Part shown: positions 29,532 through 56,666 of the stretch, one piece after another
Layout of the letters: every line of letters starts with the position of its first letter
Numbering within the stretch: position 1 is the stretch's first letter
Assembly: GCF_026914185.1 (NCBI RefSeq)
Contig: NC_070559.1
Coordinates: 8,353,501-8,417,500, forward strand
Origin: Puccinia triticina
Lineage: Eukaryota; Basidiomycota; Pucciniomycetes; Pucciniales; Pucciniaceae
Reading direction: 5' to 3'
DNA: 64,000 nucleotides
Translations under genes and position numbers: made by a program
Notes under the pieces: generated by a model
The model's input: only the letters and a program-made list of their open reading frames with translations
Database searches by the model: none
What the model was told of the DNA's origin: nothing

Positions 29532-30239
29532 TGTCAGCGGTGGGTTACTCCCGGGAAGATGTGAATCCACTCGATGGAAGTTTACTCACTAACAAGATGG
29601 ATGAATTTGCGATGTCGTATATTGATCAATATAGCGTATATTGATCAATTTTTTTTATTTGTATTATTCCTATTGATACCTTTGTCTGTTTTACATGTCT
29701 CCTTGATACTATTCTATAATCTCTCTCCTTCTGCCTGTGTTAGCTTCAAGCCACAGGAATTTTCTTTTTCTTTTGCCTGATAACATTCATAAATTTCTAC
29801 ATACACCACTCTATTCTTCCTGAAAAAAAGACATTGCAGGTTTTACGATTAAGCCAGGGTAGCTGAGGGGTCTCAATTTTTTTTTCTTTTTTTTTTTACT
29901 TCAACAATTGATGTTATCAGAAGTCTCCAAATCGACTTTTTTTCAAAAGAGGAAAAAGATTGACCCCTGACCTCTCTCATGATACCATCCTGCACACATT
30001 TTTAATTTGGTTGGTTGAACTTGCTCAAGATATTGCATATCATACTTGAAGTGCTACATGCATAGAAGGCCTTTTTGGAATTAGTTTACCATGGTTTAGC
30101 ATATTTTTGTCAGGTCCTTTTTTTTATCTACTTTTGTTATCAACCACAGATTAATGAGGAATATTTCCACATAAAATTTCATCAGACAATTTTTCTACAT
30201 ATGAAACCCAGAAATATTTTAAAATATAATTTATTTGGG

Positions 30240-32775
30240 GTCGCATCCATTATGCAGCAGCAACAATGTGATCAGTTGCCAAATATCACTAATTTGGTGT
30301 TTCTGCCACTATATCTCAGCGCAGCATGGGAGTTCTTCCATGATATTGGTACCAAAATGATCACATGCCCCTGAAGACTCATTGTGTACCTTGAATGACC
30401 ACAATACCCCCAAATGTAGCAGCCACACTGTGATCAGTTGCAAAATATCACTAATTTGGTAGTTTCTTGGTGTTTCTGCCACTATATCTCATCACAACAT
30501 GGGAGTTCTTCCATGATATTGGTACCAAAATGATCACATTCCCTCAAACATTCATTGAGTACCTTGTGTGGCCACAAAACCCCCGAATGTAGCAGCCACA
30601 ATGTGATCAGTTGCCAAATATCACTAATTTGGTGTTTCTGCCACTATATCTCAGCGCAGCATGGGAGTTCTTCCATGATATTGGTAACAAAATGATCACA
30701 TGCCCCTGAAGATTCATTGTGTAGCTTGAATGACTACAAAACACCCAAATGTAGCAGCCACAATGTGATCAGTTGCCAAATATCACTAATTTGGTAGTTT
30801 CTTGATGTTTCTGCCACTATATCTCAGCACAGCATGGGAGTTCTTCCATGATGTTTGTAACAAAATGATCACATGCCCTCAAGCATTCATTGGGTACATT
30901 GGATGACCACAAAACCCCCAAATGTAGCAGCCACAATGTGATCAGTTACCAAATATCACTAATTTGGTAGTTTCTTGGTGTTTCTGCCACTATATCTCAG
31001 GCCAGCATGGGAGTTCTTCCATGATATTGGTACAAAAATGATCAAATGGCCCTGAAGATTCATTGTGTGCCTTGGATGACCACAAAACCCCCAAATGTAG
31101 CAGCCACAATGTGATCAGTTGGCAAATGTTCTAATTTGGTAGTTTCTTGGTGTTTCTGCCACTATATCTCAGCGCAGCATGGGAGTTCTTCCATGATATT
31201 GGTACCAAAATGATTGCATGCCCTCGAACATTCATTTTGTACCTTGGATGACCACAAAACCCCCAAATGTAGCAGCCACAATGTGATCAGTTGCCAAATA
31301 TCACTAATTTGGTAGTTTCTTGGTGTTTCTGCCACTATATCTCAGCGCAGAATAGGAGTTCTTCCATGATATTGGTACCAAAATGGTCACATGCCCTCAA
31401 ACATTCATTGAGTACCTTGGATGACCACAAAACCCCCAAATGTAGCAGCCACAATGTAATCAGTTGCCAAATATCACTAATTTGGTAGTTTCTTGGTGTT
31501 TCTGCCACTATATCTCAGGCCAGCATGGGAGTTCTTCCATGATATTGGTACCAAAATGATCAAATGGCCCTGAAGATTCATGTTGTACCTTGAATGACCG
31601 CAAAACCCCCAAATGTAGCAGCCACAATGTGATCAGTTGACGAATATCACTAATTTGGTAGTTTCTTGATGTTTCTGCCACTATATCTCAGCACAGCGTG
31701 GGAGTTCTTCCATGATATTCGTAATAAAATGATCACATGCCCTCAAGCATTCATTGGGTACCTTGGATGACCACAAAACCCCCAAATGTAGCAGCCACAA
31801 TGTGATCAGTTGGCAAATGTTCCAATTTGGTAGTTTCTTGGTGTTTGTGCCATTATATCTCAGCGCAGGATGGGAGTTCTTCCATGAGATTGGTACCAAA
31901 ATGATCGCATGCCCTCGAATATTCATTTGGTACCTTGGATGACCACAAAACCCCCAAATGTAGCAGCCACAATGTGAACAGTTGCCAAATGTCACTAATT
32001 TGGTAGTTTCTTGGTGTTTCTGCCACTATATCTCAGCGCAGCATGGGAGTTCGTCCATGATATTGGTACCAAAATGATTGCGTGCCCTCGAACATTCATT
32101 CTGTACCTTGGATGACCACAAAACCCCCAAATGTAGCAGCCACAATGTGATCAGTTGCCAAATATCACTAATTTGGTAGTTTCTTGTTGTTTCTGCCACT
32201 ATATCTCAGCGCAGAATAGGAGTTCTTCCATGATATTGGTACCAAAATGGTCACATGCCCTCAAACATTCATTGAGTACCTTGGATGACCACAAAACACC
32301 CAAATGTAGCAGCCACAATGTAATCAGTTGCCAAATATCACTAATTTGGTAGTTTCTTGGTGTTTCTGCCACTATATCTCAGGCCAGCATGGGAGTTCTT
32401 CCATGATATTGGTACCAAAATGATCAAATGGCCCTGATGATTCATGTTGTACCTTGAATGACCGCAAAACCCCCAAATGTAGCAGCCACAATGTGATCAG
32501 TTGCCAAATATCACTAATTTGGTAGTTTCTTGATGTTTCTGCCACTATATCTCAGCACAGCGTGGGAGTTCTTCCATGATACTGGTACCAAAATGATCAA
32601 ATGCCCTCAAAGATTCATTGAGTACCTTGGATGACCACAAAACCCCCAAATGCAGCAGCCACAATGTGATCAATTGCCAAATATCACTAATTTGGTAGTT
32701 TCTTGGTGTTTCTGCCACTATATCTCAGCGCAGCATAGGAGTTCTTCCATGATATTGGTACCAAAATGGTCACAT
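30240..32775 (+). repeat. 173-bp satellite array, left arm of CACTA-1
   Basis: About 14 head-to-tail monomers. The landmark tgtagcagcc recurs at 30415, 30588, 30750, 30923, 31096, 31268 and so on, i.e. every 173 bp with one shortened copy. Monomers differ by point changes and end-word variants (cattgagtacc, cattgtgtacc). The period is not a multiple of three and no ORF crosses the array. Confidence 0.93.
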
Positions 32776-34680
32776 TCAAGGTACACAATGAATCTTCAGG
32801 GGAAGTTGATCATTTTGGTACCAATATCATGGAAAAACTGATCCCATGCTGGGGTGAGATATAGTGGCAGAGACACCAAGAAACTACCAAATTAGCGATA
32901 TTTGGCAACTGATCACATTGTAGCTGCTACATTTGTGGGTTTTGTGGTCATTCAAGGTACACAATGAATCTCCAGGGGCATTTGATCATTGTGGTACCAA
33001 TATCATGGAAGAACTCCCACACTGAGCTGGAATTGGTGGCAGAAACACCAAGAAACTACCAAAATAGTGATATTTGGCAAGTGTTCACATTGTGGCTGCT
33101 ACATTTGGGGGTTTTGTGGTCATCCAAGGTACCAAATGAATATTGGAGGGCATGCGATCATTTTGGTACCAATATCATGGAAGAACTCCCATGCTGCGCT
33201 GAGATATAGTGGCACAAACACCAAGAAACTAGCAAATTAGAACATTTGCCAACTGATCACATTGTGGCTGCTACATTTGGGGGTTTTGTGGTCATCCAAG
33301 GTACACAATGATTCCTCAGGGCCATTTGATCATTTTGGTTACAATATCATGGAATAACTCCCATTCTGGCCTGAGATATAGTGGCAGAAACACCAAAAAA
33401 CTACCAAATTAGGAACATTTGGCAACTGTTCACATTGTGGCTGCTACATTTGGGGGTTTTGTGGTCATCCAAGGTACACAATGAATCTTCAGGGGCATTT
33501 GATCATTTTGGTACCAATATCATGCAAGAACTCCCATGCTGGGCTGAGATATAGTGGCAGAAACACCAAGAAACTACCAAATTTGCGATATTTGGCAACA
33601 GATCACATCGTAGCTGCTACATTTGGGGGTTTTGTGGTATTTCAAGGTACACAATGAATCTTTGAGGGTTTTAGATAATTTTGGACAAATATCAAGGAAG
33701 AAATCCCACGCTGCGCTGAGATATAGTGGCAGAAACACCAAGAAACTACCAAATTAGTGATATTTGGCAACTGATTACATTGTGGCTGCTACATTTGGGG
33801 GTTTTGTGGTCATCCAAGGTACTCAATGAATGTTTGAGGGCATGTGACCATTTTGGTACCAATATCATGGAAGAACTCCTATTCTGCGCTGAGATATAGT
33901 GGCAGAAACACCAAGAAACTACCAAATTAGTGATATTTGGCAACTGATCACATTGTGGCTGCTACATTTGGGGGTTTTGTGGTCATCCAAGGTACAAAAT
34001 GAATGTTCGAGGGCATGCAATCATTTTGGTACCAATATCATGGAAGAACTCCCATGCTGCGCTGAGATATAGTGGCAGAAACACCAAGAAACTACCAAAT
34101 TAGAACATTTGCCAACTGATCACATTGTGGCTGCTACATTTGGGGGTTTTGTGGTCATCCAAGGCACACAATGAATCTTCAGGGCCATTAGATCATTTTT
34201 GTACCAATATCATGGAAGAACTCCCATGCTGGCCTGAGATATAGTGGCAGAAACACCAAGAAACTACCAAATTAGTGATATTTGGCAACTGATCACATTG
34301 TCGCTGCTACATTTGGGGGTTTTGTGGTCATTCAAGGTACACAATGGATCCTCAGGGGCATTTGATCATTTTGGTACCAATATCATGGAAGAACTCCCAT
34401 GCTGCACTGAGATATAGTGGCAGAAACACCAAGAAACTACCAAGTTAGTGACATTTGGCACCTGATCAGATTGTAGCTGCTATATTTGGGGGTTATGTGG
34501 TAATTTAAGGTACACAATGAAACCTTGGGGGCTATTGATCATTTTGATACCAATATCATGGAAGAACTCACAGGCTTTGTTGAGATATAGTGGCAGAAAG
34601 AGCCAGAAACTACCAAATTAGTGATATTTGGGAACTGATCACATTGTTGCTGCTGCATAATGGATGTGACCCCAAATAAA
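32776..34680 (-). repeat. 173-bp satellite array, right arm of CACTA-1
   Basis: Roughly 11 monomers of the same family in inverse orientation (landmark ggctgctacatttggggg). The switch of orientation is abrupt, at tggtcacat/tcaaggtacac near 32775. The two arms are of unequal length (about 3.2 and 2.6 kb including terminal parts), so unit number changes independently in each arm. Confidence 0.92.
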
Positions 34681-35765
34681 TTATATTTCAAATATATCTG
34701 GGTGTTATATGCAGAAAAATTGTCCAATGAAATTTCATGTTGAAATATTCCTCATTAATCTGTGGTTGATAACAAAAGTAGATAAAAAAAAGAACCTGAC
34801 AAAGATATGCTAAACCATGTTGGTAAACTAATTCCAAAAAGGCCTTCTATGCATATAGCACTTCAAGTATGATATGCAATATCTTCAGGCAGTTCAACCA
34901 ACCAAATTAAAAATTTGTGCAGGATGGTATCATGATAGAGGTCAGGGGTCAATGTTTTTCCTTTTTTGAAAAAAAGTAGATTTGGAGACTTCTGATAATA
35001 TCAATTGTTGAAGTAAAAAAAAAAGAAAAAAACATTGAGACCCCTCAGCTACCCTGGATTAATCCTAAAACTTGCAATGTCTTTTTTTCAGGAAGAATTG
35101 AATGGTGTATGTGGAAATTTATGAATGTTATCAGGCAAAAAAAAAAAAAAAAAATTTCGGTGGCTTGAAGGTAACACAGGCAGAAGGAGAGAGATTATAG
35201 AATAGTATTGAGGAGACATGGAAAACAGACAAAGGTATCAAGAGGAATAATAAAAAAAAAAATTGATCAATATAAATTGATCAATATATGCTATATTGAT
35301 TAATATACGACATCGCAAATTCATCCATCTTGGTAGTGACTGGGATAATCCAGTGGCTCTGAGTCGTAGATGGGGTTGAATCTGATCCAAAGAGTTTACT
35401 CCCAGCCGGTGATAAGTATTTGAGACAGTCAGGCTTGAGTTTCCGGACAGTGATTTGTTGATATGAGGGAAACTGGCTATTTGAAGTAGTGATGTGTTGA
35501 TGTATCTTCAAATAAAGAGGAATGAATAAAAGATGTTTATTATGTTCTTCTCTTCTGAAAGTCTGGGGAACAATAGAATCCAGCGAGTACAACTTATGAG
35601 CTTCCATCTACAAGTATCACTAGGTAGAAGCATAAATCATATGTCAATAACAAGGGAAATGAAAGTGAAACAGATGTGAAATTTGTAAGGAGGGCAGATG
35701 GTGTAGTAAAAGCTGATCTGGCAATCTAAGGGGTAGAAGGGTTTCACTTGCCAGCTGACATTGGA

Positions 35766-36123: not shown

Positions 36124-37379
36124 CACTACCAAGATGGATGAATTTGCAATGTCGTATATTGATCAACTAGAGTACAAGGCGGCTACGCCGCCGCAACCCC
36201 AGGGCGTCAACTCCACAGCCCACCGCCGGCCCAAGGCCCAAGCCCAGCGGCCAAAGGCACAAGGGCCAAGGTTGCCACCCGCGCAACGGACACCCCCGCA
36301 GGCTTTACGCTCATTTTAATCAGCCATCTGGCAATGCCCCGCAAATATGCCCAAAATGACCGCAGGTACCCGCACCCGCCACGAGTACCCGGGTCCACTC
36401 AGCGATCTCTAATTGACAGTAAGTACCCTCTTTCACTGACCTTGTTTATATCAGAGGAAACCCTGTTGCTCTTGACTTCTCTTCCCTTCTTCCAACACTC
36501 AAAGATCAATCAGGTTATCTCTTGTTAAGACCTTAAAAACCAGAGCAGAGTAGAAACCCTACTTCTGATTCCCACCACCGTTTCCTTGGTGTGAGTGGAG
36601 ACTGTTGCACTCTTTCAGCACAGTTGGCAGCCTACATTTCCAGTTAGAGCTTGGCCCATATTAAATCTTAATAAAAGATCATCTCTCTCTACTGCTTGTA
36701 TTTCTTTATCCCAAAAAATTCAATCAGTGCCCACCCAACTTACTTTTGTCATGTTGTCACTTTAGAGACACAGGCTCACAGATATCAAGGTAAATACAAG
36801 CATGAGTGTTTTATAATTAGGGGGTTTCACAATTGAAATTTGTAGGACACATTTTAAGGTATTCATGAACATTTTTTTCAAAAGTTGATTAATTGCATTG
36901 ATTGATCAGTATCACCTGCTGCTTTCCATCTTACCAAAATTCTTGAATTCTGGTCATATAGGTCTTAAATCTAGCTCCAAAGTTTTGTAAAATTTGACTG
37001 TGAATAACCTTCTTGTTTCACTGCCTGCATGTAAAGTACTGCTCAAAAGATACAAATTTTCAGATGTGCTACAGCCACATTGGTCTTTTTGTCATTCATC
37101 AAGTGTTGCAGAAACCTATCCTCACTTTTTCAGTGGAACCAGTTGTAATTCACATTGACAGAAAATTCAGCAGCTTATAAAAATGAGCCTCCATTCCAGT
37201 CAAAATTCTGTCCAGTTTCAGGATTGTTTTTTTCCCTTTTGTCTGATGATTCATGATTGTTGGGCTGCAAATATATTGAGTCCAGGACTCAATTCACTTG
37301 ACCTTTTACAATATTCAAAGTTTGTTTGACCTTAAAAGCTTCACAAACAGCATAATTTCATGTTGGGGTAGGTCTGAGC

Positions 37380-37960
37380 TCAAGACTCAAGTTCAGCACC
37401 AAGTTGTACTCCCAATAAAACAAGATATATCAGTTGGGGTTGTTGCATGAGCCCAATAACTTGGACACCACCGGCTGGGGCCATCAAATGGTCATGAGGC
37501 CTGGCACCACTGGCTTTGGAGGTGTCACCCTGGGATTGGCCCGCAGCTTCAGGAACTGGAAGATAAAGTAGCGCACCCTGTTGAGGCTGATGATGGGGGG
37601 GAAGTGTCTGAAGGCGCCGGCATGGGTGGTGCGAGCCTCGCCGCTGGCGCGCGGGCCGGAGACGCCAGCGGCGACGGGAATCAAAGGGCCGCGTGTGCGG
37701 GGCGAGTAGCACGGCTTGGACCCGCCGGGCTCATCTGATAAGGGCTTGCTGGATGGTGGTGTGTCCGGAGAGACCAGGCCAGCGGGGAAGGTGCGCGGAC
37801 TGTCGGGGAGGTCCGGGTGGCTTGACTGGCCGCCACCGCCGCCTCCGTCGAAGCCGGGGGATTAACGCTCGTGGGGGACAAGTATGTAGAGTGAGCTAGG
37901 CGAGTAGACGGGCTCCTAATTCGGGTTTAAATGGCGCAGCGTCGCAAGGGTGCAAATGTT
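37380..37960 (-). other. GC-rich insert in Helitron-1, possible captured gene fragment
   Basis: A GC-rich block in an otherwise AT-rich element. On the minus strand an open stretch at 37484-37684 ends VRYFIFQFLKLRANPR... then stop; it has protein-like composition. I do not recognise the source gene. Capture of host exons is common in Helitrons, but here it is inference. Confidence 0.4.
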
Positions 37961-38139
37961 GGAGGCGCCACCAACCCGCAAGCAGTTTCTTGTTTTGATT
38001 GCTCCGAAAGGGTGCGGACTGTTGCGGACGATGTATCAGGGCTGCTGTTTCAGGTCGTCCGCGAAAATGAGGGGTTTGACTTGATGGGGTGAACATAAAA
38101 AGGCGTCCTGGCCGTGTCCTATCCTCCACGGATCCAGTT

Positions 38140-38480
38140 CCCCTCTTGCACTTGCGGAGGTAGAACACAATCCGTCGGTCGATAACCCTCTCCACCCTTG
38201 CCTTTGTAGGGGCCCGAGGGGGTTAATCTTATTTCTCTCTCCCCTGTCGCACTTGCGCAGGCTGATAGAAACCCCTCCGCCTTTGCACTTGCAATTGCCC
38301 CAGGAAAAATGTATTATTCTGCCCCCCTGCTGCACTTGCACAGGCTGGTCAAAAAAAAAAAAAGAACACACAAAAAAAACCTCCCCTGTTGCGCTTGTGC
38401 AGGCTGAGCAATTCATTTGAAACCAACCATTTGCCCGCCTCTCTCCCCTTGCATTTGCAACAGGCAGAGGAGGGAGAATC
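38140..38480. repeat. GCACTTGC/AGGCTG motif cluster in Helitron-1
   Basis: Six imperfect units containing gcacttgc followed by aggctg or aattgcccc, at intervals of 50-80 bp, toward the Helitron 5' end (minus-strand sense). Similar units lie at 53245-53400 in Helitron-2. The units are partly palindromic (tgcacttgca). Confidence 0.65.
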
Positions 38481-39329
38481 CGGTCCCTTTTCATTCATGT
38501 TTCATGAATTGGGGGATCAGTCCGAGGCATTAATGTTTGGGGACTTTAAATTTAATTTTCACAGCAGCAAAGTCAAACATACTTCTGCCTGAAAAGATGG
38601 GAAATGTGGGAAACATTGCCAAGTTGGCCACTGCCACACTGGCAGCCCCCTTTTGGGGCCTTTTTGGAAAGGGGGAGGGTGAACCCATGAACCAAATTTC
38701 CACAAAAGTGTGGATTTAATATACTTAGATATAGCGTATATTGATCAATTTATATTGATCAATTTTTTTTTATTATTCTTCTTGATACCTTTGTCTGTTT
38801 TCCATGTCTCCTTAATACCATTCTATAATCTCTCTCCTTCCCCTTGTGTTAGCTTCAAGCCACAGGAATTTTTTTTTTGCCTGATAACATTCATAAATTT
38901 CTACATACACCGTTCAATTCTTCCTGAAAAAAAGACATTGCAAGTTTTAGGATTAATCCAGGGTGGCTGAGGGGTCTCAATTTTTTTTTCTTTTTTTTTT
39001 TACTTCAACAATTGATCTGTTATCAGAAGTGTGCAAATTGACTTGTTTTTCAAAAAAGGAAAAACATTGACCCCTGACCTCTCTCATGATACCATCTTGC
39101 ACACATTTTTAATTTGGTTGGTTGAACTTGCTCAAGATATTGCATATAATACTTGAAGTGCTACATGCATAGGAGGCCTTTTTGAAATTAGTTTACCATG
39201 GTTTAGCATATTTTTGTCAGGTTCTTTTTTTTATCTACTTTTGTTATCAACCACAGATTAATGAGGAATATTTCCACATGAAATTTTGTTGGACAATTTT
39301 TCTGAATATAAAACCCAGAAATAATGTTT

Positions 39330-40600
39330 TTGGGGTCACATCCATCATGCAGCAGCTGCAATCTGATCAGTTGCCAAATCTCACTACTTTGTTAGTTTCT
39401 TGGTATTTCTGCCACTATATCTCAACCCAGCCTGGGGTTCTTCCATGATATTGGTATCAAAATGTTCAGTAGCCCCCAAGGATCCATTGTGTACCTTGAA
39501 TGACCACAAAACCCCCAAATGTGGCAGCTACAATCTCATCAGTTGCCAAATCTCACTAATTTGGTAGGTTCTTGGTGTTTCTGCCACTATATCTCAACAC
39601 AACCTGGGAGTTCTTCCATGATATTGGTTTCAAAATGATCAATAGTCCCCAAGCATTCATTGTGTACCTTAAATTACCATGAAACTCCCTAATGTAGCCC
39701 TACGACCTGATCAGTTGCCAAATATCACTAATTTGGTAGTTTCTTGGTGTTTCTGCCACTATATCTCAAAGCAGCCTGGGAGTTCTTCCATGATATTGGT
39801 ACCAGAATAATCACATGCCCTCAAACATTCATTGAGTACCTTTAATGACCACAAAACCCCCAAATGTAGCAGCCACAATGTGATCAGTTACCAAATATCA
39901 CAAATTTGGTAGTTTCTTGGTGTTTCTGCCACTATATCTCAGCGCAGCGTGGGAGTTCTTCCATGATATTGGTACCAAAATGATCACATGCCCCTGAAGA
40001 TTCATTGTGTACCTTGAATGAACAAAAAACCCCCAAATGTAGCAGCCACAATGTGATCAGTTGCCAAATATTACTAATTTGGTAGTTTCTTGGTGTTTCT
40101 GCCACTATATCTCAGCACAGTGTGGGAGTTCTTCCATGATATTAGTACCAAAATGATCGAATTCCCCTGAAGATTAATTGTGTACCTTGAATGACCACAA
40201 TACCCCCAAATGTAGCAGCTAGGATGTGATTAGTTGCAAAATATCACTAATTTGGTAGTTTCTGGTGTTTCTGCCACTATATCTCAGCGCAGCTTGGGAT
40301 TTCTTCCGTAATATTGGTATCAAAATGATCAAATTCCCTCAAAGATTCATTGAGTACCTGGAATTACCACAAAACCCCCATATGTAGCAGCCACAATGTG
40401 ATCAGTTGCCAAATATCACCAATTTGGTAGTTTCTTGGTGTTCCTGCCACTATATCTCAGCGCAGCGTGGGAATTCTTCAATGATATTGGTACAAAAATG
40501 ATTAAATGCCCTCAAAGATGAATTGTGTACCTTGAATGACCAAAAAACCCCCAAATGTAGCAGCTACAATGTGAATGGTTGCCAAATATCACTAATCTGG
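39330..40600 (+). repeat. 173-bp satellite array, left arm of CACTA-2
   Basis: About seven monomers in the same orientation as the CACTA-1 left arm, more diverged among themselves. The last is cut within catctggcaa at about 40605, where orientation inverts. Confidence 0.88.
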
Positions 40601-40604
40601 CAAC

Positions 40605-41930
40605 TTATCACAGTGTGGCTGCTGAATTTGGGGGTATTGTGGTCATTCAAGGTCCACAATGAATCTTCAGGGGAATTTGATTATTTTGGTACCAACATCA
40701 TAGAAGAACTCCCACGCTGAGCTGAGATATAGTGGCAGAAACACCAAGAAACTACCAAATCAGTGATATTTGGCAACTGATCACATTGTGGCTGCTACAT
40801 TTGGGGGTTTTGTGGTCATCCAAGGTACTCAATGAATGTTTGAGGTCATTTGATCATTTTGATACACCTATATCATGGAAGAACTCCCATGCTGGGCGGA
40901 GATATAGTGACAGAAACACCAACAAACTACCAAACTAGAACATTTGCCAACTGATCACATTGTGGCTGCTACATTTGGGGGTTTTGTGGTCATCCAAGGT
41001 ACACAATGAATCTTCAGGGCCATTTGATCATTTTGGTACCAATATCATGGAAGAACTCCTATGCTGCGCTGAGATATAGTGACAGAAACACCAACAAACT
41101 ACCAAATTAGTGATATTTGGCAACCAATCACATTGTGGCTGCTACATTTGGGGTTTTTGTGGTCATTCAAGGTACACAATGAATCTTTGGAGGCATTTGA
41201 TCATCTTGGTACCAATATCATGGAAGAACTCCCACGCTGCGCTGAGATATAGTGGCAGAAACACCAAGAAACTACCAAATTAGTGATATTTGGCAACTAA
41301 TCACATTGTGGCTGCTACATCTGGGGTTTTGTGGTCATGCAAGGTACACAATGAACCTTCAGGGGTGATTAATCATTTTGGTACCAATATCATGGAAGAA
41401 CTCCCATGCTGCGCTGAGATATAGTGGCAGAACCACCAAGAAACTACCAAATTAGTGCTATTTGGCAACCAATCACATTGTAGCTGCTACATTTAAGGGT
41501 TTTGTGGTCATTCAAGGTACACAATGAATACTTGAGGGCATTTGATTATTTTGGTAACAATATCATGAAAGAAGTCCCATGCTGTGCTGAGATATAGTGG
41601 CAGAAACATCAAGAAACTACCAAATTAGTGATATTTGGCAACTGATCACATTGTGGCTGCTACATTTGGGGGTTTTGTGGTCATCCAAGGTACTCAATGA
41701 ATATTTGAGGGCAGGTGACCATCTTGATATACATATATCATGGAAGAACTCCCATTCTGGGCGGAGATATAGTGACAGAAACACCAACAAACTACCAAAT
41801 TAGTGATATTTGGCAACCAATCACATTGTGGCTGCTAAATGTGGGGGTTTTGTGGTCATTCAAGGTACACAATGAATCTTTTTGGCCGTTTGATCATTTT
41901 GGTACCAATATAATGGAAGGACTCCCACGC
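40605..41930 (-). repeat. 173-bp satellite array, right arm of CACTA-2, first part
   Basis: Inverse-orientation monomers, continued at 54548 beyond Gypsy-3. Gypsy-3 landed in the word ctcccacgctgcgctgag of a monomer. Confidence 0.88.
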
Positions 41931-42911
41931 TGTGGTGCTCCATTCCAAACCATAAGTAGTATTTTTATTGCTTTCTTTTACATATATTCATCATTACATT
42001 GAGCATTTCCCCATAACCCTTCACAAATACCTCATTATTATTGCATATTCAGATTCTACATCAAATTTCACCTATGGTCACTCATACATAGTATACCCCT
42101 ATCTTCAATGGTTCAGTAGTTATAGAGGATATAAGACTTACAGACAACCTACAGTCTTCATTAGTTACAATACTCATTTCATTAGTAACCTACTTGAATC
42201 ATTACAGTACATTCCTTTTACATATTTATTCTCACATACTAAACCCTTTACATATATTTCTCATTATGTAACACATTACATCATTAGATCTGTGCTTACC
42301 TCTTTCAGTAGTGCTCATCATCACAAGTTGTTACTATGTTCTCATCACTCTTCCCCATTAGTACATTCTTTTATTCCCATAACCAGCATTCCCCTTTCAG
42401 CATTGCTCATCATTACATACTGTTACTATTTCACATCACTCTTCCCCATTTGTACATTCCTTTATTCCCATAGCCAGAATGCCTCCACTGTCTGTGATCA
42501 TCCCTCCTTACTATAAGAACTGTCTTCCCCCCCTCACTTGTACCTCACGAGAGAACTATATGCAGAATTCTATATACAGAAATTATAAGTTAGAAATTAC
42601 TCATCACCCATTGATATCAGTGCAGTTGCTCCTGAACCCATTGCTATTGAACCTTGCCATTGCATTCCCCACTCTCATCACTCCTCCAACTCTCTTACCC
42701 TCAGTAGTCAGTAGTTAAGCTCATAGTACTAGCTCCTAAGATCAAGCAGAAATCAGCCACACCTTTTCTTCTTTTTCTTAGTGTTACTCTCATCCCCTCA
42801 GCATTAGTCAGGAAGGCAGCCTCATCAGCACCCTTGCATCGCTTACATTAGTACTATTGTTGCTATCCATTTCCCTTCCAAGCTCTATTCTCCCCTTTGA
42901 GTATTTCCACA
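41931..42911 (+). repeat. 5' LTR of Gypsy-3
   Basis: 981 bp, TGTGGTGCTCC to TATTTCCACA. Compared with the 3' LTR it lacks a few bases after cattatgta (near 42270) and differs at scattered positions. Confidence 0.93.
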
Positions 42912-42932
42912 AGTGGTGTCCCAACAGTGGCC
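42912..42932 (+). promoter_or_regulatory. Gypsy-3 primer-binding site region
   Basis: agTGGTGTCCCAACAGTGGC directly after the LTR; the same bases follow the Gypsy-4 LTR at 59141. Conservation between the two diverged elements and the position mark it as the primer-binding site. Which tRNA is used is not determined here. Confidence 0.7.
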
Positions 42933-43135
42933 TTTCTATACTTCAGATATCGTCAGCTCTAGTAACACTCTTACCATCAGCCACATACTACTTCACCTAC
43001 ACTCCTCATACTCCTTTCTCTATAAATCAACTCCCTGCTTTCAGAATCAACTTCAACCAACAGTAACACTATCAGCATCTCCATTATCAACCTTCAACAC
43101 CCTTCAGATTTAGATTCAACTTATCTGCTTCAATC

Positions 43136-45607
43136 ATGTCTGCCCAAGGATCTCCCAACACCAATGTTGCTCCCAGTCTTTACCCTCCAGTGGATCCTTC
43201 GAGTAATGCTGCAGTTCAGGACTCCACCACTTCCAATGATGGTCAGACTCAGGTTCCTCCCACTGGTCCAGGTTACCAACCTTCTTCTACTGGTCCAGGT
43301 CCACAGGCTTCTTCCAATGCTCCAGGTCCACAGGCTTCTTCCAATGTTCCAGATCCCCAGGGTTCTTCTACTCCACAAGTCAACTCCAGTTCTTACAGAC
43401 CTCCACCTGGACCTCAGACTTCCAGTATCCCTAGATACACAGGATATAGAGATACCAATCAGCCTTCAGAAGATTCAGAAGATTTAGATGCACCACCACC
43501 CCGCTTTCCCAGGTTCCAGTGCCGAAGGGACGACGCAACACACTCCACCAGGTCCAACACTCACTTTTTAAATAAGGAACCAGCTATGCCTAGGTATCAG
43601 GATCCTGTCAGCAGAAGAGTAAAGATCAAACCCATGGACAAAGAGCTCTTCTTTGATGGAACCAACATGCCTGTGGAAAAATCCATTAGAAGGTATGAAA
43701 GTGCTGGAAGAGATGATGGTGCTAACTCTAAGGAACTGGCTGGAAAAATCAATGCTTTTATCAAAGGGTTGGACCTTAAGGATGAAGTGGAAGACATGTC
43801 AGGCCATGAAAACTTGGATTGGGAAACCCTGAAGAAACAGCTACTCACCAGGTTTGGAACTTCTCAGCCATTGGTCAGATATACCAGGGAGGATCTCAGG
43901 AAACTAGTCTACAAATCTGCCCAGGATGGAGGAATCACCACCTTGGAAACCTTCAACACATTCAGAAACAAGTTTGAAACCATCACTCACTACTTGGTAA
44001 GAATGGGGTACAGTACCAGCCTGGAGGAATTCAGACACCTTCTTTTGGAAACTCTTCACAAGGATCTGGATCAAAGGGTTACTAGGAGCTTGATGAAGGA
44101 CAATCAAATGCTAGCCTCAAAGGACGGAGGTGATATCTTGCCAGACACTGAAACTCTTCTTACCTACATTCACCAGGAAGTTTACTCAAGATCAGTGGTC
44201 AACAGAAGGACTGAATGGAGGGCAGAAGAGAAATTCACTTTGGACAACTCACCTAGGACCTCCAAACCCACACCTGCTACTCAGGGAGCTGCCCCTACTG
44301 CTTCTACTTCTCTGGACAAACAAGTGGAACTCCTTACCAAACAACTTGCATCTCTCACTGCTGGCAAAGGACTACCTCCCCACATGGACAAACCTGCTAG
44401 GACCTGGCCATTCAAATGCTATTATTGTCATCAGGAAACCCATGGAACCAACAGCTGCTCTCAACTTGCCCAGGACATGTCTAGTGGTGCTGTTATCAAG
44501 GATGGAAGAGATTACAAACTTCCAGACAAATCAGTTATTCCATGGATTCCAAGCAGACCAATCAGAACCCCAGTGGAAGAGTACTCTAAAACTAAGCTCA
44601 CATCTTCTTTTGGCCAACTAGAGGAGGACCCAGTCTATTATCAAACCCATAGTTATGAAGCAGACCTTGGAAAGAGGACCAGAAACAACTCTAAGGATCA
44701 GGATGAAGAGGAATCAGCCAAGTCAGACAAAAGGGTCAGAAAGGAAAAACAGGACCTAATGGACATGGATACAGAGGACTTACTTCACATGACACAGCCC
44801 CCCACTCCTAGTGCTTCCAAATCCCCTACTTCAAAAGGCTCCCCTCAAGTCAGATTCCAGGATAAGGACAAGGATTCAACCACTGCACCTAAGGACAAAC
44901 CAGTTAAGAAAACCTATTTGGAAAAGACTTTGGCCAAGGAGTACCCAGGAATTGAAGATGAAGTGGCTAGTAGGATGTTGACTGCAGGAAAGATGGAGTT
45001 GGCCTTTGGAGAAATCTTTGCTATATCACCAGGAGTTACTGACTGTATCAGGAAGAAGATAACCAACAGAAGGGTCCCATTGGATGGTGTCAAATCAGCA
45101 AACTTCACAGACATGGAGGATTAAGAAGAACCAGCACAGGAGCAACCCACTACTCACTACTCCTGCCCCCTTGGATACATCACCATCACTATTGGAGGAG
45201 AGAAACATCAAGCACTCTTGGATACTGGCTCTATGGTCAACATTATTCCTGAAACTCTTGCACATAAACTTGGATTGGTACTCACTGCTAAATCTATGAA
45301 GCTCAAAGGAATTGGAGGCCACCTTACTGATATACCTGGAATTGCTGAAGATGTGGAGGTAACCATTGGGAAAGTAGTCAGGACAGTTCATTTCTGGGTA
45401 GCCAAAGGACCAGTTCAGATGATTATTGGAAAGCCTTTCTTGATGGATGTCTCAGCTAACATCAACTACAATGGAGCCAGAGGAGAAGCACTTTCAATCA
45501 TGGATTCAGCTGGTCAGACTTTTTTGGTTCCAATCATACTCCCCAGTAATCAGAAGTGGGAAACCAGCATACCTTCCAATTCCGGACTGGTAAATTTTTT
45601 AGATTGA
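43136..45607 (+). pseudogene. gag: Gypsy-3 Gag-protease with internal TAA
   Basis: The ATG at 43136 opens 662 codons: a Pro/Ser-rich N-terminus with a repeated TGPGPQASSNAPGPQASSN pattern (about residues 40-80), a gag core (KELFFDGTNMPVEKSIRRYE onward, about 160-350), and a zinc knuckle CYYCHQETHGTNSC near residue 425. TAA at 45122-45124 ends it, but the same frame continues with the retropepsin motif LLDTGSMVNIIP (Asp-Thr-Gly-Ser intact) to a TGA at 45605-45607. In Gypsy-4 the equivalent codon is AAA and Gag-protease is one ORF, so TAA is a single A-to-T nonsense change here, unless it is read through. A slippery site precedes the final stop. Confidence 0.9.
45595..45601 (+). promoter_or_regulatory. 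Programmed -1 frameshift site T TTT TTA (Gypsy-3)
   Basis: The heptamer TTTTTTA lies in the correct register (AAT TTT TTA) two codons before the protease TGA. A -1 slip gives a frame that stays open through SAKYKSTLKKIKPVN to the RT-deletion point. The same heptamer in the same register occurs at the same place in Gypsy-4 (61937-61943). This is the canonical X XXY YYZ form. Confidence 0.82.
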
Positions 45608-47788
45608 GACCAGGTTTTCAGTTCCCTTCCCTTACAACTGCAACCCTGGAAAACAACCAAAAGCAACAAACTGTAGACACTCATTCAGCAAAATATAAAT
45701 CAACTCTAAAAAAAATAAAACCAGTAAACCAACCAATGCCATTATCTCTCAATCCCCCATTATCAAGGCCACCACTCTCCAGAGATCCTTACCTCACTCC
45801 TTTGAGCCCTTTTCCTCCACCATTCACTTGTTAGAATGTTCATTAAAAATTACTCAACCCTCACTGCTCCACTCAGAAGACTCACCAGGAAGGACTCCTC
45901 TTGGGATTGGACTGAAGATTGCCAGGATGCCTTTGAGGACCTTAAAAGGATTGTTGGAACTGATATCACCCTGAAGAAATTGGACTATGGACCTGATGCT
46001 GGCTTAATCAAACTCTCAGTGGACTCCAGTGTTATTGCTGCAGGTGCTGTTCTTACTCAACAGGATTCTGATGGATTGGATAGGCCTGTGTTATATGAGT
46101 CAGTAGTCTTTTCACCCAGGGAATCAAAGTACTCACAATTCAAATTAGAACTCTGTGGTGTTGCCAAGATCCTCAAGAAACTTCAAACAAAACTGTGGGG
46201 CCAACATTTTCAACTCAGAGTGGATGCCCAGTGCCTTATTGGAATGATCAACAACCCTTCACTTCCCAATGCCCCTATGAACAGATGGATTGGATTTATT
46301 CAGTTATTCTCCTATGACCTTGTTCACACTCCTGGAAAAACTTTCACCTTACCTGATGGACTTTCAAGAAGACCCCCTGATTCTGATGAAGATGATTGTC
46401 CTAGCTTTGATGAAGATGAAACCTGGATCAAACCTCACCCTGGATTTGGAACTAAACATTCTTCTTTTGGCCTGCTTCTGGGGACATCAGCTAAGTTGGG
46501 GGAGGGGGTAAGTGACTTGCAGCAAGGAATTTGGAAGCACCTCCAGGAATACCTTTCAACCATGAACAAACCTCCAGGATGCAGCAGCCTGGAATTCAAG
46601 CAAATTTTGCACAAATCAGCCAACTTCTTCCTTTCCAATGAAGTCTTGCACAGGATCAACAAATCATTCTCCCAGATAGTAGTCACCTCTCCTTCAGCTC
46701 AGAAATCCATCCTCAATTCCCTTCATGAATCCTTAGGCCACAGGGGTATTGCTGAAACCTACAGAAGGATTAAACTCAGATTTTGGTGGCCAGGTCTCAA
46801 GAGAGGTGTTACCAAGTGGGTCCAGTCTTGTGAAGCTTGCCAGAAGAGGAGTTCAAAATTGCCAATGGAACCCAAGAAACATACAGGAGCAGCAACCATC
46901 TTTGGAAGAGTCAGTTTGGATACAGTTCACATCAAAGCTGGCAAATGGAAATACCTGGTAATTGCAAGAGATGACCTCTCTGGATGGGTAGAAGCAGTTG
47001 GACTAGAAAAGATTCAAGCAAAGAAAATCTCTCAGTGGTTCTTGGACAACTGGATCTACAGATATGGAGCTCCTTGGTCAGTCACAGTGGATGGAGGCTC
47101 TGAATTTGGACAGCAATTTCAAAAATCCCTTCTGGAATCTGGAATCAAAATCAAAGTCACCACTCCTTATTATCCTGAAGCAAATGGTATGGTAGAAAGA
47201 GGACATCAGGCAATTAAGGATACCTTGGTCAAGCTCTGTGGAAAAGAAGGCAAGAAGTGGAGGAATTATTTACCTTTAGTTTTATTTGCAGACAGGATTT
47301 CCACCAAGAGATCAACTGGGTACTCGCCTTATGAACTAGTTCTTGGAAAGCCCCCCATCTCACCCATTGATTTAGAATTGGAAACCTTCTTTGGAGTGGA
47401 TTGGTCAAAGGTAGAATCAACTCAGGATCTTTTATTGGCTAGGACTCAGCAGCTTGAAAACAGGGATACCATCTTGCAGCAAGCACACCAGCAGCTCATG
47501 GATTCCAGGAAAAACTCTGTGGATTATCGGAACAAGAAGAAAACATTAAGGCAGCCACTAAAGAAAGGTCAATTAGTAGTAGTGTATAACAAATCTTTGG
47601 ACTCTCAGTTTGGCAAGCTCTTTGAAAATAAATGGAATGGCCCTTACAGAATCAAGGCTCAAAATCCAGGAGGATCTTACGATCTTACATCTTGGAAGAA
47701 TTGGATGGCACAGAATTGGCCAGAAGGTTTGCTGCAACTCATGTCAAGGAATACCACTCCAGGAAAAAAAACAATAAATAAGGAATAA
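45602..47788 (+). pseudogene. pol: Gypsy-3 pol with RT deleted (RNase H-integrase)
   Basis: After the frameshift the frame encodes the pol leader (KPVNQPMPLSLN ... SRDPYLTPLSP), ends at FTC-TAG (~45834), and the next codons already belong to the region after RT (MFIKNYSTLTAPLRRLTRK). In Gypsy-4 the leader is followed by over 300 RT residues, so roughly 1.3 kb including the catalytic domain is gone; the junction is near 45830. Downstream 45836-47788 is intact: RNase H (SVDSSVIAAGAV, LRVDAQCLIGM), integrase zinc finger (HESLGHRG ... CEACQKR) and the D-D-E core (LDTVHIK, TVDGGSEF, GMVERGH). Without RT the element cannot copy itself and would need an RT from a relative. Confidence 0.92.
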
Positions 47789-47934
47789 TCAATTCATTTC
47801 TCTTCTCTTTTCTCTTTCTCATCTTCTTACACAATAACATAAAAACAAAATAAAATAAAATCTATAAACAAATCAGAAATAAATCAATAAAAATCAGTTT
47901 CAAACACTCTCAAATAAAATAACTAAATATAAAA

Positions 47935-48070
47935 TCAAAAGCTCACCTCTTCTTCTTTTATCACTACATCACCCTCTTCCATTTCACTTTCCTCCTCCTT
48001 CTCTCTTCCCTTCTCCTTATCTAAAAAATAAAAATCAAAAGACATACAAAGAAAATTTAAGCATAACATT

Positions 48071-48104
<34 letters not shown>

Positions 48105-48736
48105 CAATAAAGAATAAAAATAGAACTTACCCTCAGCTCTTATCCTCTCCATTTCTGCTTTTACCCTCCAACCATCTTCCTCCTGTTCCACTTGGTCCCT
48201 CACCCTTAACAACTCCAGGGCATTCCTTTCTTCAGTTTCTGCTACCATGGCATCTATTATAGAATGAGTATCCATCTAGCAAATCGAAATAGAAGCAGGG
48301 ATTAAAGTATTAGTATTATAGTCAATTTTTTTCTTCTAGTTTTTTTTTTCCGTTATATACATACAGAATCCACTCGACATACATGTGCAAAGGCGTCGTG
48401 AAACCGGCTGTATAACCTGAGACGGGCGTTTCGAGCCGCTACTGGGTCGTCGAAGTCCTCACGAGCGAAGGCGAGGAGTCCCTGCTGGATATAATGGCGA
48501 AGAGCATCCACTTCTTCTGGTTTAAAGCTATCTCTCGAGAAAGCATTGTATGCGGGAACGTTGTTGACAAACGAATGCGCTCGTCGGACAGAAAACGGGA
48601 ATTTGTGCGCTGGTCTAATTACGGCTTCTTCGTTGAGCTGCAAAGAAGAAATGGACGTGTTGGAAGAATAATCTATTGAGTTTTTGGTGTTATTTTTTGG
48701 CAACGATGGTGTGGACATAGCGCTGGACGAAATCAT
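47935..48736 (-). CDS. Antisense spliced gene carried by Gypsy-3
   Basis: Opposite to pol, between pol and the 3' LTR. Exons 48736-48365, 48275-48131 and 48020-47935; introns 48364-48276 (GTATGT...CTAG) and 48130-48021 (GTAAGT...TTAG, holding a run of about 30 T on this strand). Phase is kept and a 200-residue protein results: a Ser/Asn-rich start (MISSSAMSTPSLPKNN), a central segment (FSRDSFKPEEVDALRHYIQQ ... LRLYSRFHDAFAHVCRVDS) and an acidic/basic helical tail rich in Glu and Lys. If the GTGAGC at 47946 is used as a donor, a further exon overlapping the pol end is possible. I do not recognise the protein. The central segment may mediate protein contacts; function unknown. It could be a captured host gene. 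Confidence 0.65.
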
Positions 48737-49960
48737 TGTGGATAATGTAGAGCGATAACGGGAATGTCCCTTTGGCTGACAACCTTGACCTTATAGATAC
48801 CACTTCCTACTCATATTATGACGTCACTAGGGACGCCTTCACCGCTCAGAATTGTGTTGCGCGGATTCTCTTTCATTTTCTTAATATTGACTCTGGTGTT
48901 CGACCCAGTTTAATTAATCTTTGGATCGCTTTTTGGATTGCCTACACGTCATTCATTATTCCTAAAATTGTTTTCAGGCGAAAGGCCAGCTTCAGGAGTC
49001 TAATTGGACAGCTCCTTGGCGTTACCTTAAGATTATTTCATCATGTATTCATCTTCCTTCAACTCCTATACGATGAAAACTGCGGGGAATCATAATGACA
49101 CTCTGAACGGCTTCAACAACTTCTCGGCTGGTCGCGAAATTAACATTCAAGGTTTCAGAATTGATCTTTCCGATCTTGCCTTTCATTTGAACTCTGTTCC
49201 AGTTCATTCTACCGAGTGGTTCAAAAGTTATACGCGCTCAAAGTTCCCTTAGTATTTCCACGGTCTCATTTACGGTTTTCATTCAGCGTTCACGGCTGCC
49301 CCTCGGCCGAATTAATCTTTAATATTGCTCGGTTGTCCGTTCATCCTCTCCTTCTCGCCTTTCTAATGAGCCCGGAATTAGAACTTTTAATTGACGGACA
49401 TCCAAGTTATACCCGAAAACATATTGCCTTATATTTATGCGGTGTTACTACTATGCGCGCCCGCGGATTTCGCCTGGATCCTTAACCGGCCCTACACAAT
49501 TGATAATCAAATCTTAAAAATAATTAGTATATACCATTTTGATCAATGGAATCGGCTCTTTCGAATGGGCTTGGTTCCAAGAAAGTTCATCGAGCCTTTC
49601 CGAAGATACAGGTCGACCATTTCCTTTCTTTTTTTTTTTGGCGTTCCGCACGCGCGCCTTCCGCATGGAGCCCCCGCTCAGACATCAGGACCCCTCTTTT
49701 GACAGTACACGCGGATGGACACATGTTCCATTCCCCATCTGGACAAAATTAAGGCTGTTTCGTCAAAAGGGTGAATTCCAAAGTGCCCAGTACTGAGGAG
49801 GAACCATAAATCATTCATTCCCCCCCATTATGAGGGGAAGGGGGGATCAATCCCGGAGAGCCATTCATCCATGGAGGGTTGATTCATTCCTTATTGTCAT
49901 CCTGAAGGATTCTTTCTGGAAATAATCATTCATTCATTCCTGAACATCAATCATTCTGCT
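48737..49960. other. Non-retroviral segment of Gypsy-3, no gene assigned
   Basis: About 1.2 kb of mixed composition upstream of the antisense gene. Four overlapping plus-strand frames of 70-107 codons exist but none has a clear start context or domain. It may be the promoter and upstream flank captured together with the antisense gene. A T-rich run sits at 49628-49638. Confidence 0.45.
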
Positions 49961-49964
49961 CCAT

Positions 49965-50065
49965 CATCATCATCATCAATCATTCTGCTCCATCATCATC
50001 ATCATCAATCATTCTGCTCTATCATCATCATCATCAATCATTCTGCTCCTTGATCATCATTATCA
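49965..50065. repeat. Minisatellite, ~33 bp unit, in Gypsy-3
   Basis: Four copies of a unit containing catcatcatcatcaatcattctgctc, just upstream of the zinc-knuckle ORF. The unit itself is built on the catcat microsatellite. Confidence 0.85.
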
Positions 50066-50096
50066 TCAATCATTCAAATCTTTCTTCTCCACCATC

Positions 50097-50387
50097 ATGG
50101 TCAGTTTCCCAATGGACCCCACTCCTGAAAATCAAACCTCTTCAATCACTCCCAAACAGAAGAATTATAAGTGTTTATATTGTTTTCAGAAGGGTCACAC
50201 CATCACTAGGTGCCATCTAGTTACTTATGATAAACATAAAGGATTAGTTAGACAGATTGGTAAAGCAGGCATATGGCTTTCAGATAATTCCTACATCCCT
50301 TTAGATTTTTCTAGGTCTGTTAAAAGCTTAGTTGAACTTCTAGGAGTAGCTGGGACACTTTCAGAAACCACCCAATTGGATCATTAA
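50097..50387 (+). CDS. Stand-alone zinc-knuckle (nucleocapsid-like) ORF in Gypsy-3
   Basis: 96 codons, ATG in a good context (ccaccatgg-like). Carries CLYCFQKGHTITRC (C-x2-C-x4-H-x4-C) at about residues 29-42, then DKHKGLV...G...LSDNSYIPLDFSRSVKSLV. This pattern matches the Gypsy-4 Gag segment CNYCHMIGHTIHRC ... GLVKKEG ... LPDGTQIPYDRTRPFKTVV more closely than Gypsy-3's own Gag. It is therefore a detached copy of a Gag nucleocapsid module placed after pol in a separate ORF. It could bind element RNA or act on Gag in trans; that is inference. Confidence 0.7.
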   Translation: MVSFPMDPTPENQTSSITPKQKNYKCLYCFQKGHTITRCHLVTYDKHKGLVRQIGKAGIWLSDNSYIPLDFSRSVKSLVELLGVAGTLSETTQLDH

Positions 50388-50689
50388 CATTCTCTGGACA
50401 GCTTATCAACCTCCCTGGACTTCAAATTCTCTTCACAGAACTCTACATTATATACTCAGATACTCAAAAATTCAGTCATTCAACTCCAAATCATTCACAA
50501 CCTTCAGAAATTACAATTATCAACCCCATCAATCATCATCAATCATTGCATTCTTCCATTGGCCTCAGTTAGGCAGGAAAATTATTGTACTCTTCAGAAT
50601 GGAATTTAGTCTAATATGTGTCTGTCTCAAGGATATTGCCTTCAGCAGAGTTAGATCTTCTTAAACATTCACCCCTCATTGATAATTGG

Positions 50690-50960
50690 ACCTTCTTTTG
50701 GATACTGGACTCTTTGGATTGGATACTGGACTATGGATACTCTGGATACATAGGACTACTGGACTTTGGATTGGACTTGGATACCTTGGACTCAGATATA
50801 CTGGACTTGGATTATACTTGGATTCTATTTGGCTTTGGATACCTTGGACTCAGATATACTGGACTCTGGATTTGGACTACTACTCAGGACTTTGGATTTC
50901 ACCTTCTGGAGGAACACTGGACTTTGGACTTTGGACTCTTGGACTCAACACTCTTCAACT
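50690..50960. repeat. TGGACT/TTGGAT-rich low-complexity tract
   Basis: Irregular tandem words ggatactggact, ttggactttgg and cagatatactgg, open in several frames because it lacks stops by composition. Not a gene. Confidence 0.8.
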
Positions 50961-51008
50961 CATTCTGGATCACCTTTCTCTTGGGTGCATTGCCTGGGGA
51001 CAGACAAT

Positions 51009-51022
51009 AAGTTGGGGGAGGA
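51009..51022 (+). promoter_or_regulatory. Polypurine tract of Gypsy-3
   Basis: aagttgggggagga directly before the 3' LTR start at 51023; this is the plus-strand priming site. Confidence 0.8.
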
Positions 51023-51053
51023 TGTGGTGCTCCATTCCAAACCATAAGTAGTA

Positions 51054-56010: not shown

Positions 56011-56666
56011 CGACCCCAAATAAATTATATTTTAAAATATTTCTGGGTTTTATACGCAGAAAAACTGTCCAATGAAATTCTATGTGGAAATATTCCTCAT
56101 TAATCTGTGGTTGATAACAAAAGTAGATAAAAAAAAGAACCTGACAAAAATATGCTAACCCATGGTAAACTAATTCCAAAAAGGCCCTCTATGCATGTAG
56201 CACTTCAAGTATGATATGCAATATCTTGAGCAAGTTCAACCAACCAAATTAAAAATGTGTGCAGGATGGTATCATGAGAGAGGTCAGGGGTCAATGTTTT
56301 TCCTCTTTTGAAAAAAAGTCGATTTGGAGACTTCTGATAACATCAATTGTTGAAGTAAAAAAAAAAGAAAAAAAATTTGAGACCCCTCAGCTACCCTGGA
56401 TTAATCCTAAAACTTGCAACGTCTTTTTTTCAGGAAGAATTGAGTGGTGTATGTAGAAATTTATGAATGTTATCAGGCAAAAGAAAAAAAAAATTAATGT
56501 GGCTTGAAGCTAACACAGGCAGAAGGAGAGAGATTATAGAATAGTATCAAGGAGACATGGAAAACAGACAAAGGTATCAAGAGGAATCATAAAAAAAAAA
56601 ATTGATCAATATACGCTATATTGATCAATATGCGACATTGCAAATTCATCCATCTTGGTAGTGATT

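What the first reader, a model, noticed from the sequence alone, without database searches (positions are those of the whole stretch)
29587..35338. CACTA element that is almost entirely an inverted pair of 173-bp satellite arrays
Ends, 3-bp TSD (ACT) and tattgatcaata subterminal motif define a CACTA transposon. Instead of a transposase it holds about 14 monomers of a ~173-bp repeat facing about 11 inverse copies. Short subterminal repeats are known in CACTA elements; a nucleosome-length satellite filling both arms, Foldback-like, is not something I know to be described. Such an element could seed satellite DNA, make very long dsRNA, or form large hairpins.
Basis: partly seen in the sequence, partly recalled or inferred. 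Interest (0 to 1): 0.9.

Follow-up and report, generated by a model that had tools for sequence, protein, structure and literature searches.

The report
Transposon with mirrored satellite arms
A CACTA-ended jumping element in a rust-fungus genome consists mostly of two facing arrays of a 173-base repeat, and its family shares, at 67 other places in that genome, one central join that was likely made once by a DNA strand folding back and copying itself and then spread by transposition.

Summary
Window 29587-35338 has CACTA ends, a 3-bp duplication (ACT), 14 forward and 11 reverse copies of a 173-bp monomer, and no unique middle. It belongs to a large family: 577 ends genome-wide, reversed-pattern control 0. 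Of 25 end pairs, 19 have perfect 3-bp duplications; both window copies have related empty sites.

In most examined copies the palindrome is inherited, not remade. One centre, a hairpin built on the monomer's own inverted repeat, occurs at 67 places and in 14 of 23 centres read. The ~690-bp arms form two clades, and centre polarity agrees with them in 14 of 14 elements. The window element is an exception: both arms fall in one clade (moderate support), its centre differs, and its arms share a 474-bp identical tract. A sister subfamily has related ends but the arrays turned round.

Likely origin: snap-back copying of half a satellite-bearing CACTA element, then transposition in trans. No autonomous partner or asymmetric ancestor was found. 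Tetris (Drosophila) and Chenopodium CACTA elements with 171-bp arrays are precedents: a new variant of a known kind.

The parts
29584..29586 (.). left copy of the target-site duplication, ACT
   Evidence: empty-site matches
29587..29648 (+). left CACTA end with subterminal TATATTGATCAATATA motif; terminal stretch shared with subfamily B (62 bases, 85%)
29649..30252 (+). left non-satellite arm, clade Y
30253..32775 (+). forward array, 14 monomers of 173 bp
31045..31518 (+). 474-bp tract identical to the inverse of 33716-34189
32773..32775 (.). centre of the palindrome (3-bp overlap of the two arrays), not the J1 centre
32773..34658 (-). reverse array, 11 monomers
33716..34189 (-). partner of the 474-bp identical tract
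34659..35338 (-). right non-satellite arm with right CACTA end; basal in clade Y (support 0.82)
35339..35341 (.). right copy of the target-site duplication, ACT
36124..56663 (+). second copy of the family, TSD ATT/ATT, interrupted by later insertions at about 36167-38734 and 41957-54544
39347..40600 (+). forward array of the second copy
40578..40610 (+). J1 centre of the second copy (2 mismatches)
   Evidence: C2:8394078-8394110
40598..41932 (-). reverse array of the second copy, first part
54611..56002 (-). reverse array of the second copy, remainder beyond the nested insertion

Best explanation
This is a CACTA-ended foldback element without a transposase gene of its own, whose mirrored 173-bp arrays were likely created by a snap-back copying event inside an older satellite-bearing element and then multiplied by transposition predicted to use a transposase supplied in trans. 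Shown: the ends, 3-bp duplications, related empty sites, one centre shared by 67 places, two arm clades whose polarity follows that centre, and array lengths that differ from copy to copy. Inferred: the monomer's inverted repeat CCAAAT-7 bases-ATTTGG let a 3' end ATTTGG pair with the CCAAAT just upstream and copy its own strand back to the CACTA end, which would give a second end and drop any gene beyond the switch point in one step. The window copy is likely a re-made version, formed by recombination between two Y halves or by replacement of its X half.
For: Perfect 3-bp duplications at 19 of 25 end pairs; empty sites for both window copies. J1 centre identical in kind in 14 of 23 centres read and at 67 places, reversed control 0; 12 of those 14 are among the 67, L013 and L031+032 have 3 mismatches. 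58 of 67 have an inward exact end within 16 kb, against a mean of 1.1 for shifted positions. J1 = GTTGCCAAAT-ATCACTA-ATTTGGCAACTGATCA, exactly what self-copying from the monomer's inverted repeat gives. Arm clades X (17 arms, support 0.99) and Y (18 arms, support 0.82; 0.99 for 14 of them); centre polarity agrees in 14 of 14 J1 elements, 11 with both arms placed and 3 with one. X-Y divergence 6.4% within and 6.5% between elements, Y-Y 3.4%, X-X 4.1%. 86.1% of monomers have their nearest neighbour in another element in the same arm type, 49.8% under random flips, maximum 78.7% of 1000. Window copy: 24 of 25 monomers nearest to Y arrays, 474-bp identical inverted tract against 62-153 bp in 21 other elements and at most 314 bp between elements.
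Against: No transposase could be tied to these ends: PF02992 within 8 kb inside exact ends 3 (A) and 1 (B), expected 2.0 and 1.0. Six of 25 pairs lack a perfect duplication (L012, L016, L020, L024, L025+026, L031+032), and some of these have outlying or mixed arms (L024_5, L031_032_3, L020_5, L025+026), so recombination between elements is common too. Nine of 23 centres are not J1; L019 and L029+030 share another one. Subfamily B's centre has no clear 6-base repeat at the switch point (read by eye). Support for placing the right window arm in Y is only 0.82, and its distance to Y (5.7%) is not far below that to X (6.9%). The snap-back step is read from the product and was not observed.
Confidence: 0.68

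Rival explanations
1. The palindrome arose by recombination between two elements with one-directional arrays lying head to head, not by snap-back copying; transposition then spread it.
For: The window copy looks like such a recombinant (two Y halves, other centre), several elements without perfect duplication have mixed or outlying arms, and nine of 23 centres are not J1.
Against: The J1 switch point coincides with the two halves of the monomer's own inverted repeat, 7 bases apart, as snap-back predicts; exchange between arrays would not need that site.
Confidence: 0.22
2. The 173-bp repeat is a host satellite (for example centromeric) and CACTA-ended elements merely captured or inserted into it.
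For: Nucleosome-like length; nine of 67 J1 centres have no exact end within 16 kb; a C. quinoa CACTA element is read by its authors as having captured a satellite (PMC8978399, passages).
Against: 58 of 67 J1 centres have an inward-facing exact end within 16 kb against 1.1 for shifted positions; ends with mismatches were not listed, so 58 is a lower bound. Exact ends lie on all 18 contigs, 5 to 16 each. No element-free array was demonstrated, but the two probes at arrays without a listed end were too short to tell.
Confidence: 0.07
3. The mirrored structure is an assembly artefact.
For: Inverted arrays of 1-9 kb are hard to assemble and I had no reads.
Against: Forward-then-reverse arrays recur at 23 of 25 loci with different flanks and lengths, and one 33-base centre recurs at 67 places.
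Confidence: 0.03

Closest known systems
Tetris foldback element of Drosophila virilis (PMC4079207, passages read)
   Same: Long inverted ends made of a flanking domain plus a variable number of ~220-bp tandem repeats; no autonomous copy found; tandem repeats with internal turnover.
   Different: 8-10 bp duplications and suggested Mutator membership, a variable middle domain, only three structurally complete copies, and repeats also in long arrays. Here: CACTA ends, 3-bp duplications, no middle, one inherited centre at 67 places.
CACTA-like elements of Chenopodium quinoa with a 171-bp satellite array; Jozin (PMC8978399, passages; PMC7320549, outline and abstract)
   Same: CACTA superfamily; array of a nucleosome-length monomer (32.5 x 171 bp) inside the element.
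   Different: There a single array near the 3' end of an element that still has a Transposase_21 gene; here two mirrored arrays and no gene. The Chenopodium layout resembles the ancestor inferred here.
EnSpm/CACTA families of rust fungi (PMC12730594, passages)
   Same: CAC..GTG termini, 3-bp duplications, Puccinia hosts including P. triticina.
   Different: Those carry transposase and TET/JBP genes; no satellite or foldback form appears in the passages I read.
Galileo and FB foldback elements of Drosophila (Galileo mentioned in passages of PMC4079207; FB recalled)
   Same: Very long inverted ends with internal tandem repeats.
   Different: [quoted passage not shown] repeat units and duplications differ (recalled).

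Membership tests
CACTA/EnSpm (CMC) transposons | termini CACTA...TAGTG | tested here: met
   window element and all 24 fetched pairs, which were chosen by that end
CACTA/EnSpm (CMC) transposons | 3-bp target-site duplication without fixed sequence | tested here: met
   19 of 25 pairs perfect, with many different triplets; empty sites for two copies
CACTA/EnSpm (CMC) transposons | subterminal repeated motif | tested here: inconclusive
   TATTGATCAATA occurs two or three times near each end; no binding evidence; the TGATCA sites of the monomer are not specially conserved as a pair (83rd and 18th percentile of 6-mers)
CACTA/EnSpm (CMC) transposons | tnp2-type transposase (PF02992) encoded by an element with the same ends | tested here: inconclusive
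   at least 150 PF02992 matches in the genome, but contacts with listed exact ends are at chance level; window element has no frame of 150 codons
Foldback elements | inverted ends that make up most of the element and contain internal tandem repeats | tested here: met
Foldback elements | can fold back into a long stem | not tested
   complementarity 88.7% over 2576 columns; no folding run
Tetris | 8-10 bp target-site duplication | tested here: not met
   3 bp here; Tetris value from PMC4079207
Classical satellite DNA | tandem arrays independent of transposon ends | tested here: inconclusive
   9 of 67 J1 centres have no exact inward end within 16 kb, but ends with mismatches were not listed; two short probes stayed inside arrays

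The most novel reading that the evidence does not exclude
Half-element snap-back is a one-step route by which a satellite-bearing CACTA transposon becomes a mirrored, gene-free element with two working ends, and it happened at least twice from opposite halves of one ancestor: subfamily A kept one end with the array reading inward one way, subfamily B kept the other end with the array reading the other way. The satellite monomer, through its own CCAAAT/ATTTGG hairpin, is the switch that makes the palindrome.
Probability: 0.35. Interest if true: 0.78.

Novelty: new variant of a known kind. Interest (0 to 1): 0.62.

Why it matters
How foldback elements arise, and how satellites and transposons are linked, is usually argued from few, degraded copies. 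Here one centre marks a single origin at 67 places, arm divergence orders that event before the later spread, and array growth can be followed per arm in copies with known insertion sites. Mirrored arrays estimated at about 1% of the genome (extrapolated) would also be natural sources of double-stranded RNA and of chromosome breakage; neither was tested here.

Tried and rejected
Autonomous partner: PF02992 (150 of 179 candidates scored) and PF18759 (29 weak matches, many at PF02992 places) were sought. PF02992 places were compared with 201 listed exact A ends and 100 listed B ends; contacts were at chance level. The A contacts at C11:2407608 and C12:1974608 and the B contacts at C6:2721191 and C13:2520779 remain possible but unread; the third A contact, C6:5315710, has its partner end before the PF02992 match, so it lies outside that element.

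Asymmetric A/B ancestor: no mixed inward-facing pair under 31 kb among the listed exact ends. Ends with mismatches were not in that list.

Homogenisation between arms: rejected for the ~690-bp arms (X-Y 6.4% within, 6.5% between elements). For monomers, 28 of 772 nearest neighbours lie in the other arm of the same element against about 11 expected, so some exchange happens, most clearly in the window copy.

A transposase-binding role of the monomer through TGATCA: not supported by conservation.

L010:4418-5428, which I took by eye for a hAT transposase, has no Pfam match at 0.001, so I do not name it. Coding frames in other long loci were not classified.

Papers: passages read from PMC4079207, PMC12628747, PMC8978399 and PMC12730594; outline and abstract of PMC7320549; all others seen only as search listings. 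The library holds open-licence papers only.
Full report
WHAT IS IN THE WINDOW. The window is C2:8353501-8417500 of an unnamed 122.8-Mb genome in 18 contigs. A tnp2 transposase of this genome has its closest named relative in Puccinia graminis (69% identity), so the host is a rust fungus; size and contig number would fit Puccinia triticina (recalled, not tested). Element 29587-35338 begins CACTAACAAGATGGATGAATTTGCGATGTC, ends with the inverse of CACTACCAAGATGG..., and is flanked by ACT on both sides. It holds 14 forward and 11 reverse monomers of 173 bp that meet at 32773-32775 with no unique middle, and no stop-free frame of 150 codons. The halves match as an inverted repeat at 88.7% over 2576 columns. 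A second copy spans 36124-56663 (TSD ATT/ATT) and carries two later insertions, at about 36167-38734 and 41957-54544; the second has 97% direct repeats at its ends. Flanks joined with one copy of the 3 bp match uninterrupted sequence elsewhere. For copy 1, 38 of 40 scored matches cross the join, best 99% over query bases 66-240. For copy 2, 38 of 40 cross it, best C14:2577696 at 98% over all 240 bases. In each search the other two matches are the window's own flanks. These are precise insertions.

A LARGE FAMILY. The 26-base end occurs 286 + 291 times at up to 3 mismatches, reversed control 0; this includes subfamily B, whose ends differ at 3 places. With CACTACC and 0 mismatches there are 101 + 98 ends. 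Among the 201 exact ends that I could list (one of the 199 was not printed; three with another sixth base were added), neighbouring ends form 41 inward-facing pairs under 16 kb against 4 outward-facing; each contig has 5 to 16 ends. The first 100 listed ends gave 25 inward pairs under 16 kb: the window element and 24 others on contigs 1-8, all fetched. Of these 25, 23 have a forward array followed by a reverse array (in L022 the forward piece is only 98 bases); L020 (one short array) and L035+036 (reverse arrays only) do not. Nineteen of 25 have a perfect 3-bp duplication; L012, L016, L020, L024, L025+026 and L031+032 do not. Monomers matching a 44-base stretch at up to 3 mismatches number 2021 + 1988, control 0. 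Calibrated on the 25 loci and window copy 2 (398 hits for 752 monomers), that suggests roughly 7,600 monomers or 1.3 Mb, about 1% of the genome, an extrapolation from loci picked by exact ends.

MADE ONCE, THEN CARRIED. Of the 23 centres read, 14 are the same, here called J1. J1 occurs at 67 places at up to 2 mismatches, control 0; 12 of the 14 are among them and two (L013, L031+032) have 3 mismatches. Of the 67, 58 have an inward-facing exact end within 16 kb, 19 on both sides; shifted positions give a mean of 1.1. A FastTree of 48 of 52 arms (dropped for short overlap: L020_3, L023_3, L033_034_3, L035_036_5) splits the main lineage into clades X (17 arms, support 0.99) and Y (18 arms, support 0.82). 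In the 14 J1 elements the polarity of J1 always agrees with arm placement; 11 have both arms placed, and L024, L031+032 and L033+034 have one. X-Y divergence is 6.4% within an element (14 elements) and 6.5% between elements, Y-Y 3.4%, X-X 4.1%. So the palindrome is older than the spread of the copies, and the non-satellite arms are not homogenised. For 511 monomers of 17 elements (three arms labelled from their partner), 86.1% of nearest neighbours in another element have the same arm type, against 49.8% when orientations are flipped at random, maximum 78.7% of 1000. Local duplication is strong: 262 of 772 nearest neighbours are in the same arm against about 24 expected. In those 17 elements arrays hold 3 to 19 monomers on the X side and 6 to 55 on the Y side; Y exceeds X in 12, equals it in 2 and is below it in 3 (Wilcoxon p = 0.003).

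HOW THE CENTRE LIKELY FORMED. The monomer contains CCAAAT-ATCACTA-ATTTGG (consensus). J1 reads GTTGCCAAAT-ATCACTA-ATTTGGCAACTGATCA: up to ATTTGG it is the ordinary monomer, and from there it is the reverse complement of what precedes CCAAAT. That is the product expected if a 3' end ATTTGG pairs with CCAAAT 7 bases upstream and copies its own strand. Fold-back priming at short inverted repeats is an established route to large palindromes (general knowledge; one search gave related listings only). Inside an element the copy would run back to the CACTA end, so one event would supply a second end and drop whatever lay beyond the switch point, a transposase gene included. This step is inferred.

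THE WINDOW COPY IS UNUSUAL. It lacks J1. Both its arms fall in clade Y, the right one basal with support 0.82 and 5.7% from Y against 6.9% from X arms; 24 of its 25 monomers are closest to Y arrays. It carries a 474-bp exact inverted match between its arms (31045-31518 with 33716-34189). The 21 other elements measured have 62 to 153 bp, and arms of different elements share at most 314 bp. It is likely a recombinant of two Y halves, or an element whose X half was replaced, with recent exchange between the arms.

A SUBFAMILY TURNED ROUND. The element at C1:2735558-2747061 has ends CACTACAAACATGGATGAATTTGGGAAGGC, TSD ATA/ATA, and a ~530-base arm (93% between its two ends) unrelated to arm A beyond the terminal 62-88 bases. 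Its arrays run reverse first, then forward. A second element on C2 (about 6082600-6100831) has the same arm type on both sides, 96.9% and 95.6%, and the same order. Listed monomer strands at two further B pairs (C3:78585-89475; C2:165541-171815, left part only) agree by eye. B ends number 66 + 62 at up to 2 mismatches. The B centre occurs at 9 places at up to 3 mismatches, control 0, and by eye each lies between or beside listed B ends. The simplest reading is that A and B are palindromes of opposite halves of one ancestor, TIR-armA-array-armB-TIR. I did not find that ancestor: 0 mixed inward pairs under 31 kb among listed ends.

MOBILISATION. The genome has at least 150 PF02992 matches and another CACTA family with CACTACAAGAAAA ends (213 exact against 8 for the reversed control). 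No transposase could be tied to the foldback ends beyond chance. Mobilisation in trans is predicted, not shown.

COMPARISON. Tetris is alike in layout but has 8-10 bp duplications (PMC4079207), so this is not a Tetris. CACTA elements of Chenopodium quinoa with a 171-bp array near the 3' end (PMC8978399) are the nearest in superfamily and resemble the inferred ancestor. Rust EnSpm families with 3-bp duplications are in print (PMC12730594). My searches turned up no CACTA foldback built of satellite arrays; most of their hits were seen as listings only, in an open-licence library.

Noticed in passing
genome-wide; L001-L008: A separate CACTA family with plant-like ends: CACTACAAGAAAA occurs 213 times against 8 for the reversed control, and in four of eight loci (L001-L004) an inverse partner CACTGCAAGAAAA lies 0.2-1.4 kb away, so its two ends may differ at one base.
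   Followed up: partly
41957-54544: Insertion in copy 2 bounded by direct repeats 97% alike (41957-42912 and 53577-54544), with RNase H and integrase domains in the frame 45836-47788: an LTR retrotransposon younger than copy 2.
   Followed up: partly
15817-16756 and 62911-63851: Direct repeats of about 940 bases, 97% alike, 47 kb apart; both contain a 20-base tandem repeat. They may be the two LTRs of the gypsy-type element that hosts this nest of insertions.
   Followed up: no
about 29532-29586 and 35339 onward: The DNA hit by copy 1 is itself a repeat: empty-site matches mostly begin at query base 65 or 66, so copy 1 sits in a repeat that in turn lies beside gypsy-type frames (27482-28843).
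   Followed up: partly
monomer consensus positions 18-78 against 79-157: One half of the monomer is clearly more conserved than the other across 772 monomers; the best 12-mers lie in GCCACTATATCTCA. Whether this is protein binding or mutation bias is unknown.
   Followed up: no
L019 and L029+030: These two share another centre (GAATTGTTCTGCCAGAGTGTTAGTA...) and arms of another subfamily, perhaps an independent palindrome within type A.
   Followed up: no
17 elements with X and Y arms: Array length is lopsided: Y exceeds X in 12 of 17, with Y up to 55 and X up to 19 monomers. The cause is unknown.
   Followed up: no
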